From positions 1-33,635 of the forward strand of contig MGSS01000006.1 in assembly GCA_001798595.1 (NCBI GenBank): 33,635 nt of DNA, given 5' to 3'. Origin of the DNA: Deltaproteobacteria bacterium RIFCSPLOWO2_12_FULL_60_19 (GTDB lineage Bacteria > Desulfobacterota > Binatia > UBA9968). Numbering within the stretch: the stretch's first letter is position 1; each line of letters opens with the position of its first letter. Both the position numbers and the translations under genes were made by a program. Below, one piece after another: positions 805-26,205 of the stretch. A model generated the notes under the pieces. That model ran no database searches, was not told where the DNA came from, and saw only the letters and a list, made by a program, of their open reading frames with translations.

Positions 805-845
805 AAAAAAAGGGCCCGCGCCATCCAGGTAGACAGCGCGGGCCC
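805..845 (-). terminator. Intrinsic terminator of the small transcript
   Basis: On the minus strand a perfect 10-bp GC stem (gggcccgcgc at 812-821 and gcgcgggccc at 836-845) is followed directly by seven T residues (811-805). This is a textbook Rho-independent terminator, and its orientation fixes the strand of the transcript. Confidence 0.85.
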
Positions 846-908
846 CGGTGACTGAGGGGAATTCAAGGCCCTAAGCCTGAACCCCCGTCAAACGAGTAGG
901 CTCAGACC

Positions 909-953
909 CTAAGTCTCAGCCACCTCACAGTCCGTACATTTGTCATTTATCAC
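909..953 (-). CDS. Possible 14-residue peptide with a CxxC pair
   Basis: A GTG at 953 begins MINDKCTDCEVAET and stops at TAG (911-909). The Shine-Dalgarno sequence AAAGGAGGT (968-960) leaves seven bases between GGAGG and the GTG, an ideal distance, and is among the strongest in the window. The peptide is acidic and carries C-T-D-C, a possible metal or thiol site. The stop codon falls exactly in the UUAGG loop of hairpin 1. A second in-register start, the ATG at 946, would give a different 14-residue peptide (MTNVRTVRWLRLRV), but its RBS spacing is worse. Whether either is made cannot be told from one sequence. Confidence 0.4.
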   Translation of the reverse strand: MINDKCTDCEVAET

Positions 954-982
954 TGGACCACCTCCTTTCCCTGCTGGCCCCC

Positions 983-18952: not shown

Positions 18953-19070
18953 CTGCTGTATTGAGGCCGGTCAGAACGGTCCCAGCTACAAGGCGCGCGA
19001 AGGTCCGCGAGCGGAGGCGTACTTTTCCAGTACGTTGACGCGAAGCGGGCCGAGCGCACCTATCACTACC

Positions 19071-19206
19071 GCCCGCCTGGGGGTCTCTCGAAGGGCCTAC
19101 GCGTGGGACGAGAAGGATCAAGCGTACCTCACACATGCTCTCAGCTCTTCGGAGCAGCGTGACACCGACGTATCGCGTAGGCCCGGAGAGAGATTCCCAG
19201 GCGGGC
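19071..19206 (+). ncRNA. Long-hairpin structured RNA, copy 1
   Basis: A helix of about 30 bp closes a 70-nt core. The outer part, GCCCGCCTGGG (19071-19081), pairs fully with CCCAGGCGGGC (19196-19206). The middle part, GGTCTCTC, pairs with GAGAGATT including two G-U pairs. Next come a symmetric GAA/GGA internal loop and the inner helix GGGCCTACGCG (19093-19103) with CGCGTAGGCCC (19174-19184). The core is 19104-19173. A second copy on the minus strand at 26003-26152 aligns without gaps over the core (53 of 70 identical by hand). Its inner helix has a C-G to T-A pair change and its outer helix is rewritten but still paired. The shared G-U pairs fix the strand. The overall shape recalls 6S RNA, but I cannot assign it. 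No convincing promoter or terminator is visible. Confidence 0.65.
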
Positions 19207-19234
19207 TGACGGTAGATGGGCCGTTATGGCCGGC

Positions 19235-22200
19235 CTACGAGCGGGAGGGATCGTAGCCGAGGACGGGCGAGAGCCAGCGCTCCACTTCCGCGACCGTCAT
19301 CCCCTTGCGCCTGGCGTAGGATTCGACTTGATCGCGGCCGACGGCGCTCACGGCGAAGTAGCGCGATTCCCGATGGGAAAAATAGAGGCCGGAGACCGAC
19401 GCCGCGGGAAGCATGGCGAAGTTCTCCGTGAGAGAAATGCCGGTCGTCTTTTCGACTTCCAGCAAATTGAACAGAGTCCGCTTCTCCGTGTGGTCCGGAC
19501 AGGCGGGATAGCCGGGCGCCGGGCGGATGCCCTGATATCTCTCTCCGATCAGCTCTTCATGCGTCAAGTTTTCGTTCCTGCCGTAGCTCCACTCGCGCCG
19601 TACCCGCTGGTGAAGATATTCGGCGAACGCCTCGGCGAGGCGGTCCGCTAGAGCTTTCGCCATGATCGCATTGTACTGGTCGTTGTCCTTCTCGAAGCGC
19701 TCGGCCAGTTCCTGCGTTCCGTGGCCCGTGGTGACGGCGAACGCTCCGAGGTAATCTCCCACGCCGCTCTCCCGCGGCGCGACAAAATCGCTCAGCGCCA
19801 GCTGCGGCTTGGCGGCCTGGCTCTCTTTCTGCTGGCGGAGCGTGTGAAATCGCGCCAGCTCCTTGCTCCGCGATTTGTCCGTGTACAGAATAATATCGTC
19901 TCCCTCGCTGTTGGCCGGGTAAAAGCCGTAGACCGCGTGGCCGGCCAGAAGTTTTTTCTCGACGATATTTTTCAACAGCTCTTTGGCGTTGGCGAAAAGC
20001 TCTCGCGCGGCGGGGCCCCGCGCCGGATCGTTGAGCAGGTCGGGGTAGCGGCCCCGGATCTCCCAGGTGTGGAAGAAAGGCGACCAGTCGATATAGGGAA
20101 CCAGCTCGGACAACGGAAATTCTCGCAAGACCTTCGCGCCGGTGAAGTCGGGCGCGTAGACATGGGATTCTTCCCAGTCGATGTGGAGCTTTTTTCGCCC
20201 CGCCTCCTCGTAGGTCAGCAATTGAACGGCCGTTTTGGCCTCGTACTGCCGGCGCAGCTCTTCCTGCTCGGCGCGGTTCTTCGCCGCCAATTCCTTTCGG
20301 CTGCGGGAGTTGGTCAGAGCGCCGACGACCGGCACGGCGCGCGACGCGTCGATCACATGAACGGTCTCATGCTCATACGCAGGCGCGATCTTGACCGCCG
20401 TGTGCCTCTTGCTCGTCGTCGCGCCGCCGATCAGCAGCGGCAGCTTGAGGCCGCACCGCTCCATCTCCTTGGCGACGTGGACCATCTCGTCGAGAGACGG
20501 CGTGATCAGTCCGCTCAGGCCGATCATATCCGCCTTCTCTTTGACGGCGGTTTCGATGATCCGATCCGCCGGGACCATGACGCCCAGATCGATGACCTCG
20601 TAATTATTGCAGCCGAGCACCACGCCGACGATGTTCTTCCCGATGTCGTGGACATCGCCTTTCACGGTCGCGAAGATAAGCTTCGCGCGGGCCCTGCCCT
20701 GATCGGCGGCCTTTTTCTCCGCCTCCATGAGAGGCGTGAGCTGGGCGACGGCCTTTTTCATCACGCGCGCGCTCTTCACCACCTGGGGAAGAAACATCTT
20801 CCCCTCGCCGAACAGATCGCCGACCACGTTCATGCCGTCCATCAGCGGCCCTTCGATGATCTCGAGCGGGCGCTGGTATTTCTTAAGCGCCTCTCCGAGA
20901 TCCTGCTCGATGTAATCGAGGATTCCTCTGATGACCGCCTCGGAGAGGCGGTGCTCCACGCTGCCTTCGCGCCAGGCCGCCTCCGCGGCGGCGCTCTTCG
21001 CGCTCCCTTTGTAGCGCTCGGCAAGCTCCAGCAGCCGCTCCGTGGCGTCGGGCCGACGATTGAACAGCACCTCTTCGACGCGCTCGAGCAATTCCCGGGG
21101 AATCTGCTCGTAAACCGCGAGCTGGCCGGCGTTGACGATCCCCATGTCCATGCCCGCCTGGATCGCGTGGTAGAGAAACGCCGCGTGCATCGCCTCGCGC
21201 ATCGCGTCGTTGCCGCGAAATGAGAACGAGATGTTGCTCACGCCCCCGGAGATGTGGCAGCGCGGGTAGAGCTGCTTCAGTTGCCGGGCCGCGTCGATGA
21301 AGTTGATCGCGTAGTCGTTGTGCTCCTCCATGCCCGTGGCGACGACCAGGATGTTGGTGTCGAAGATAATGTCGCTCTCGTCGAAGCCGATTTCCTGCGT
21401 CAGTATTTCGCGCGCGCGCGCGCAGATCCGGAGCCGGTGTTCGACGGTCGTAGCCTGGCCCTGCTCGTCGAAGGCCATGACGACCACCGCCGCGCCGTAA
21501 CGGCGGACGAGCCGCGCCCTGCGTTTGAACTCCTCTTCGCCCTCCTTGAGCGACAGAGAGTTGACCACGGACTTGCCCTGGACGCACTTGAGCCCCGCTT
21601 CGATCACGTCGAAGTTCGAGCTGTCGATCATGATCGGAATCCGGCTGATCTCCGGATTGGCCGCGATGTGGTGCAGGAAGGTGGCCATCGCCTTGACGGA
21701 ATCGAGCATCCCCTCGTCCATATTGACGTCGAGGATGTTGGCCCCGCCTTCCACCTGCTCGCGCGCGACGGTCAGGGCCTCCTCGTACTTCTCTTCCCGG
21801 ATGAGCCGGGCGAATTTGCGCGAGCCGGCGACGTTGGTCCGCTCCCCGATCATGATGAAGTTGGAGTCGGGGCGAATCGTCAGCTGCTCCAGACCGCTCA
21901 GGTGAGTAAAGCTGTCGCGCTCGACGGGGACCCGCGGATGTACGCCGCGCACGGCCTCAGCGACGGCGGCGATATGTTCCGGCGTCGTGCCGCAGCAGCC
22001 GCCGACCAGATTGAGCCATTTTTCTCGGGCCCAGTCACCCAAAAATTTGGCGAACTCCGCCGGACCCATGTCGTAGCCGCCGAACTCATTCGGCAGGCCG
22101 GCGTTGGGATAGGCGAAGATCGGGAGAGGCGAGAGGCGCGAAAGCTCCTCGATGAACGGAACCATCTGCGCTGGGCCGAGAGCGCAATTGATGCCGACGG

Positions 22201-26002: not shown

Positions 26003-26152
26003 CTGCCGCCGGCGGCCGCCAATCTCTCTCCGGGCCTATGCGATACGTCGATGTTACGCTGCTCCCAGGAACTTCGGGTATCTGTGAGCCACGCTTGAGT
26101 CTCTTCGTCGCACGCATAGGCCCTCCGAGAGACCGCCGGCCGCCGGCGACGG
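26003..26152 (-). ncRNA. Long-hairpin structured RNA, copy 2
   Basis: Read on the minus strand it has the same plan as copy 1. A GC-rich outer helix of about 20 bp (26152-26133 with 26022-26003) has a few mismatches. It is followed by TCTCTC/GAGAGA, a GGA/GGA internal loop, the inner helix GGGCCTATGCG (26123-26113) with CGCATAGGCCC (26042-26032), and a 70-nt core (26112-26043). Core blocks shared with copy 1 include CAAGCGT, CTCACA, GGAGCAGCGT and CGACGTATCGC. It lies 150 bases upstream of rng in the same orientation and about 110 bases from the divergent HNH gene. It could be an independent RNA or part of the rng leader. The rest of 25855-26263 holds only the HNH promoter. Confidence 0.65.
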
Positions 26153-26176: not shown

Positions 26177-26205
26177 TTGACTTTGGCCTCCTGCGCCGAT
26201 ATTTT
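26177..26205 (+). promoter_or_regulatory. Sigma-70 promoter of the HNH endonuclease gene
   Basis: TTGACT (26177-26182), a 17-base spacer and TATTTT (26200-26205) lie about 60 bases upstream of the ATG at 26264. AAGGAG at 26231-26236 in between is too far from the ATG to be its RBS. Confidence 0.6.

What the first reader, a model, noticed from the sequence alone, without database searches (positions are those of the whole stretch)
19071..19206. Two copies of a long-hairpin RNA show compensatory base changes
Copy 1 (19071-19206, plus) and copy 2 (26003-26152, minus) have the same architecture. The outer helix is GC-rich, then comes TCTCTC/GAGAGA with G-U pairs next to it, a 3x3 GRA/GGA internal loop, an 11-bp inner helix, and a core of exactly 70 nt. 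The inner helix changes C-G in copy 1 to T-A in copy 2, and the outer helix has quite different sequence in each copy yet stays paired. Paired changes of this kind are the usual sign of selection on RNA structure rather than a copied DNA repeat. The length and rod shape recall 6S RNA, but the core is not one I recognise, and two copies in 33 kb is unusual. It may be an undescribed RNA family.
Basis: partly seen in the sequence, partly recalled or inferred. Interest (0 to 1): 0.85.

Follow-up and report, generated by a model that had tools for sequence, protein, structure and literature searches.

The report
Mobile hairpin repeat with RNA-like fold
The two hairpins belong to an undescribed family of small mobile DNA repeats, at least 57 copies in this one bacterial genome, in which one strand has been kept folding into the same elaborate, probably RNA, shape even where its stem sequence has changed completely; what the shape does is not yet known.

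Summary
The two hairpins belong to a dispersed family: at least 57 intergenic copies in this 4.2-Mb MAG, plus copies in nine other genomes of the same family and one of a sister family, and almost nowhere else. No Rfam family matches. Over 77 aligned copies, 22 of 34 base pairs change on both sides and stay paired (covariation score 0.319, against 0.147 shuffled and at most 0.086 slid). Mismatches on the + strand are G·T, not A·C (47:7 here, 92:5 in relatives), and the + strand folds better in 109 of 112 copies. So one specific strand is selected to fold, most likely as RNA. The element is also mobile: copy 1 rides inside a miniature inverted-repeat element (18963-19236). Copy 2 is a bare insertion of about 155 nt, absent from 22 relatives that share the flanking gene. 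The cap is conserved and the ends are replaceable, the reverse of REPINs and MITEs. Best reading: a non-autonomous mobile hairpin whose folded + strand, probably RNA, presents a conserved cap to an unknown partner. Transcription, partner and transposition mechanism are untested.

The parts
19071..19206 (+). Hairpin copy 1, whole structured element
   Evidence: fold z = -7.5; CM R1 157.1 bits; 57 copies in the genome
19071..19089 (+). Outer helix, 5' arm (pairs with 19188-19206); includes two conserved G-U pairs
19188..19206 (+). Outer helix, 3' arm
19090..19092 (+). 3x3 purine internal loop, 5' side (GAA; opposite GGA at 19185-19187)
   Evidence: conserved
19093..19103 (+). Inner 11-bp helix, 5' arm (pairs with 19174-19184)
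19104..19173 (+). 70-nt conserved cap: P2 (19108-19110/19123-19125), lone pair 19151-19155 around a 3-nt loop, conserved unpaired CAAGCGUA and AGCGUA; shortened to about 50 nt in relatives
18963..19236 (.). Larger inverted-repeat element (MITE-like) that carries copy 1; left terminal repeat 18963-18981, right 19218-19236, overlapping the metH stop codon
   Evidence: empty 126-128-bp versions elsewhere in the genome
26003..26152 (-). Hairpin copy 2, bare insertion without the MITE, with a replaced but paired GC-rich outer stem
   Evidence: fold z = -8.9; CM R1 131.7 bits; absent from 22 relatives; spacing 206 nt against 46-51 nt in five of them
26177..26205 (+). Conserved sigma70-type promoter of the HNH gene (TTGACT-17-TATTTT), about 25 nt beyond copy 2; context, not part of the element
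   Evidence: conserved position in relatives; read from the sequence

Best explanation
An undescribed family of small, non-autonomous mobile hairpins of uncultured bacteria deposited as 'Deltaproteobacteria bacterium'. SHOWN: it is dispersed between genes; it is inserted at sites where relatives have none; the + strand as written is selected to fold into a two-part rod (outer helix, 3x3 purine loop, inner helix) that ends in a conserved cap with a short P2 stem and a lone pair closing a 3-nt loop; stem sequences are free as long as they pair, the cap is not. INFERRED: the functional molecule is the + strand as RNA, made by read-through because no promoter of its own was found; the rod is a handle and the cap binds a protein (or a ligand, or is catalytic), and this is what lets copies spread and persist. 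In this genome the hairpin mostly travels inside a 127-bp MITE, but it can also move alone. The trans-acting partner is unknown.
For: 57 copies, all intergenic apart from one weak overlapping prediction. 22 of 34 pairs with two-sided changes, 94% of cells paired, covariation 0.319 against 0.147 shuffled and at most 0.086 slid. G-T to A-C 47:7 in this genome and 92:5 in relatives, + strand more stable in 109 of 112: strand-specific selection. Position 4:133 uses all four Watson-Crick pairs, 33:104 switches G-C to A-U in whole lineages, and 81:85 is G-C 49, C-G 13, U-G 3 around a 3-nt loop, typical of folded RNA. All 16 invariant columns of 77 sequences lie at positions 18-120, none in the outer 16 at either end: the cap, not the ends, is recognised. 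Constrained sites stay about 98% conserved even where the surrounding MITE has decayed to random similarity (Spearman -0.07). Mobility: copy 2 is absent from 22 relatives and only one shared site was seen between genomes.
Against: No transcript data exist here, and no promoter-like signal precedes the hairpin beyond controls. In about half of the copies the nearest upstream gene points the other way, so read-through of the + strand is not obvious. G-T pairs and tandem G-A pairs also form in single-stranded DNA, and the + strand also folds better with DNA parameters (107 of 112). No partner protein was found.
Confidence: 0.55

Rival explanations
1. Single-stranded DNA hairpin mobilised by a HUH (Y1) transposase or similar enzyme, as proposed for REPINs; the fold is needed in ssDNA during replication, and there is no functional RNA.
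For: Mobile, dispersed and strand-specific. REPINs show compensatory stem changes (PMC3116915). Y1_Tnp genes occur in all 25 genomes of the family.
Against: Y1 copy number does not follow hairpin number (19 Y1 and no hairpin in G013; 1 Y1 and many hairpins in G018 and G022). None of the three Y1 loci of this genome carries the hairpin. No GTAG foot. Conservation is reversed: ends variable, centre conserved. The + strand tends to lie on the G-poor strand, not the G-rich one expected for a lagging-strand template (weak, confounded by gene direction).
Confidence: 0.25
2. Cis-acting mRNA element (3' UTR stabiliser or attenuator, as reported for BIMEs or Yersinia ERIC) kept by the host at each locus.
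For: Intergenic; in this genome 39 of 56 right-hand neighbours end near the hairpin, often exactly one MITE arm (31 nt) away. Constraint persists after the MITE decays.
Against: In those cases the gene's sense strand is the less stable strand with A-C mismatches. The location differs in other lineages, where several copies lie upstream of genes. Almost no sites are shared between species.
Confidence: 0.12
3. Plain MITE: terminal inverted repeats of a DNA transposon, pairing only because TIRs are inverted copies.
For: A true MITE with terminal repeats surrounds copy 1 and many others.
Against: The hairpin itself has no conserved end sequence, no target duplication beyond control, and a strand-asymmetric G-T excess that a double-stranded palindrome cannot give. 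Copy 2 and the variants in relatives lack the MITE.
Confidence: 0.05
4. RNA copied back into DNA by a reverse transcriptase acting in trans (SINE-like).
For: RNA-like fold; this genome holds reverse transcriptases and a group II intron.
Against: No RVT_1 match in 7 of 10 carrier genomes, including the 98% complete G016 (several others are incomplete).
Confidence: 0.03

Closest known systems
REPINs / REP sequences with RAYT transposases (PMC3116915, PMC3733652)
   Same: Short dispersed intergenic hairpins, non-autonomous and mobile, with compensatory and G-T stem changes
   Different: REPs have 5-13-bp stems, a GTAG or CGTC tag and conserved ends with a variable middle; here the stem is a 19+11-bp rod, ends are variable, the cap is conserved and no tag or transposase link was found
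ERIC / IRU repeats (127 bp) of enterobacteria (PMC2267715)
   Same: Intergenic imperfect palindrome of similar length, single long stem-loop, dispersed; Yersinia ERICs act through RNA hairpins
   Different: No sequence relation is known; the conserved 70-nt cap and cap-level covariation shown here are not part of what I found described for ERIC
bcr1-bcr18 repeats of the Bacillus cereus group (PMC3446304)
   Same: Dispersed MITE-like repeats with conserved RNA secondary structure, limited to one clade; about half are transcribed there
   Different: Unrelated sequence and clade; transcription is unknown here
HEARO / IscB omega RNA
   Same: Structured RNA carried by mobile elements in many copies (own knowledge)
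   Different: No Rfam match even at E <= 10, and no associated nuclease gene found
6S RNA
   Same: Rod shape and approximate length only
   Different: No Rfam match; copy number about 60 instead of one or a few

Membership tests
REP / REPIN | GTAG (or CGTC) tag at the foot of the stem | tested here: not met
   GTAG at 3 of 112 feet, control 4; CGTC at 52 of 112 but it belongs to the MITE flank, 3 of 22 in copies without it
REP / REPIN | Conserved terminal sequences, variable spacer | tested here: not met
   Invariant columns only at positions 18-120 of 136
REP / REPIN | RAYT gene flanked by the repeat | tested here: not met
   Three Y1_Tnp loci of this genome show no hairpin; no correlation over 25 genomes
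MITE | Terminal inverted repeats | tested here: met
   Met for the 127-bp carrier of copy 1 and of many others; the hairpin itself has paired but not conserved ends
MITE | Target-site duplication | tested here: not met
   For the hairpin: mean repeat length 1.37 against 1.52 in control; not measured for the carrier
MITE | Matching autonomous transposon | tested here: inconclusive
   The terminal-repeat search gave pairs compatible with short elements; no transposon identified, not every pair inspected
6S RNA | Match to the Rfam 6S model | tested here: not met
HEARO / omega RNA | Match to the Rfam HEARO model | tested here: not met
HEARO / omega RNA | Adjacent IscB or TnpB gene | not tested
   no dedicated search of all copies; the HNH gene beside copy 2 is a 210-aa protein conserved in 23 of 25 genomes without the hairpin
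attC (integron) | RYYYAAC / GTTRRRY boxes at both feet | tested here: not met
   0 of 112
Structured RNA family | Covariation above controls and strand asymmetry | tested here: met
Structured RNA family | Transcription | not testable with these tools
   no RNA-seq on hand

The most novel reading that the evidence does not exclude
A new class of mobile RNA elements built from a common handle (long, sequence-free stem plus a GRA/GGA 3x3 purine loop) and exchangeable caps. The evidence does not exclude it: family A (this finding), family-A stems with a different A+T-rich cap (one at the same genomic site where another species has the normal cap), and a second hairpin family B with the same GGA/GGA loop and another conserved cap. 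The caps would be RNA domains, possibly catalytic or ligand-binding, recognised by a common unknown protein.
Probability: 0.2. Interest if true: 0.85.

Novelty: new variant of a known kind. Interest (0 to 1): 0.6.

Why it matters
Bacterial intergenic repeats are usually explained as end-recognised DNA (MITE, REPIN). Here the ends are free and a central cap is fixed, with covariation that is strong, strand-specific and reaches into the cap. If RNA, it is a new structured RNA family with about 60 natural variants per genome, and it would show that a bacterial repeat can be propagated or kept by RNA shape. It also shows that compensatory changes between two copies do not separate 'RNA' from 'mobile repeat'.

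Tried and rejected
6S, SRP and any other Rfam family: no match. Plasmid or viral origin: none found. RAYT/REP membership, attC and reverse-transcriptase partner: not supported. Own promoter upstream of the hairpin: nothing beyond controls. Orthologous retention of copies as proof of host function: only one shared site, and there the two species carry different caps. Spread over the phylum: 2 of 395 genomes, both from the home family. Pairing inside the cap beyond P2 and the lone pair (for example GCGU/ACGU, predicted) is not kept in the relatives and is not claimed. Copies found by pattern are biased towards conservation of the 29-nt block searched; conservation was therefore measured outside it, and a sensitive CM search found few decayed copies.

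Full report
WHAT IS THERE. Both hairpins are exactly as described. Searching the genome of the window (G000, 4.19 Mb in 162 contigs, 97% complete) with copy 1 gave 40 full-length matches, the cap of that output; with copy 2, further ones; a 29-nt pattern from the 3' half gave 57 sites, 38 of them perfect, against 0 for the reversed control pattern. All 57 were extracted: ungapped 136-nt alignment, mean pairwise identity 81%, with 88 positions at least 90% conserved and 14 below 60%. A more sensitive covariance-model search adds a few diverged ones.

DISTRIBUTION. Of 25 genomes of the same family, 10 carry it, with many copies in four genomes of one genus (G004, G012, G018, G022), several in G002 and one or two in others. 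One further genome of the same order has a copy. A scan of 395 genomes across the phylum found only G000 and G004. Named relatives are uncultured 'Deltaproteobacteria bacterium' groundwater and sediment MAGs. None in viral contigs or plasmids.

STRUCTURE. RNAalifold on 43 copies gave ten pairs with changes on both sides. On 77 copies from ten genomes, with the structure stated in advance (outer 19 pairs, inner 11, P2 3, lone pair 1), 94.0% of cells pair (shuffled 84.4), 22 pairs have two-sided changes (13.8), 214 cells (47), covariation 0.319 (0.147); none of 500 shuffles reaches any value; sliding the partner by 1-3 columns drops the score to 0.086 or less. Relatedness inflates the shuffle comparison, but the slide control keeps it. 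Position 4:133 occurs as C-G, G-C, A-U and U-A; 33:104 is G-C or A-U by lineage; 81:85, a lone pair around three nucleotides, is G-C 49, C-G 13, U-G 3.

WHICH STRAND. A palindrome in double-stranded DNA has no preferred strand: a G-T mismatch on one strand is A-C on the other. Orientation is defined by the cap. Excluding two positions where G-U is the rule (39 and 48 of 51 copies), mismatches in G000 are 47 G-T against 7 A-C (by site type 15 to 6, p = 0.08; the cell count is not independent). In relatives the count is 92 to 5, and the + strand is more stable in 55 of 55 there, 109 of 112 overall. This is strand-specific selection on a single strand. RNA is the likelier carrier, but ssDNA also tolerates G-T; DNA parameters favour the same strand (107 of 112).

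MOBILITY. Most G000 copies lie inside a 127-bp inverted-repeat element with ends CAGGCCGGTCAAAAAGGTC...GGCCTTTTTCAGCGGCCTG; empty versions exist, in which the hairpin site reads CAACGCAGTAGATGG. Copy 1 is such a case: left arm 18963-18981, right arm to 19236, abutting the metH stop codon. Copy 2 is not: between the RNase G and HNH genes 22 relatives have no hairpin, and the interval between two conserved boxes is 206 nt here and 46-51 nt in five relatives, so about 155 nt, the hairpin alone, was inserted, some 25 nt upstream of the HNH promoter. Neighbouring genes show almost no shared insertion sites between genomes; the one shared site (G012 L139, G022 L023) has different caps in the two species.

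WHAT IS CONSERVED. Outer stems differ completely between lineages yet pair; all 16 invariant columns are at positions 18-120. Copies whose MITE flank is no better than random keep the constrained sites at about 98% (Spearman -0.07, p = 0.63). So what is recognised is the cap on a rod, not terminal sequences. That is opposite to REPINs, in which the ends are invariant and the spacer varies (PMC3116915).

RELATED HAIRPINS. Some copies keep the family-A stem and 3x3 loop but hold a different A+T-rich cap (L136, L139, L142, L195-L198). A second family B (L035, L049, L053, L132, L134) has a GGA/GGA loop at the same place, a paired variable stem and another conserved cap. This suggests, but does not prove, a shared handle with exchangeable caps.

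PARTNER. Y1_Tnp is present in all 25 genomes, without relation to hairpin number; RVT_1 is missing in 7 of 10 carriers; no promoter upstream; no target duplication. The partner is unknown.

GENE CONTEXT. Gene calls are from my own codon-usage scoring, not from a gene finder. In G000 the hairpin's right side faces the 3' end of a gene in 39 of 56 cases, usually with the MITE arm touching the stop codon. The + strand lies on the G-poor strand in 45 of 57; part of this is gene direction, but 15 of 18 symmetric contexts agree.

VERDICT. Confirmed observation; partly supported interpretation; an undescribed family of mobile hairpin repeats with RNA-type constraint. Shown: family, covariation, strand preference, insertion of copy 2. 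Inferred: RNA as the active form, cap-binding partner, role in spread.

Noticed in passing
L053:1174-1273, L132:356-456, L049, L035, L134: Second hairpin family (B) with the same architecture and GGA/GGA 3x3 loop but another conserved cap, AUCCGAUACUGCCGGUGGGAAUAAGCAGCUACCCAUU; five copies in the stretches held; no Rfam match in the four loci searched.
   Followed up: partly
L139, L142, L136, L195-L198: Family-A stems with a replaced A+T-rich cap; at one orthologous site two species have different caps.
   Followed up: partly
L068-L087; window 18963-19236: A 127-bp MITE in dozens of copies, one end often directly abutting a stop codon; its terminal bases also co-vary between the two ends.
   Followed up: partly
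L122:1700-2450 (G000 contig C64): Group II intron (RF02003) starting beside a MITE terminal repeat and a damaged hairpin copy.
   Followed up: no
window 805-975, strand -: Rfam match to Ms_IGR-5 (RF02471, 47.5 bits, cutoff 45), described as an actinobacterial sRNA, in a genome of another phylum.
   Followed up: no
L066 (G000 contig C144): RAYT-like Y1 transposase gene flanked by inverted ATTAAATGTCTGACCCC ends, resembling the 'TIRYT' arrangement of PMC3733652.
   Followed up: no
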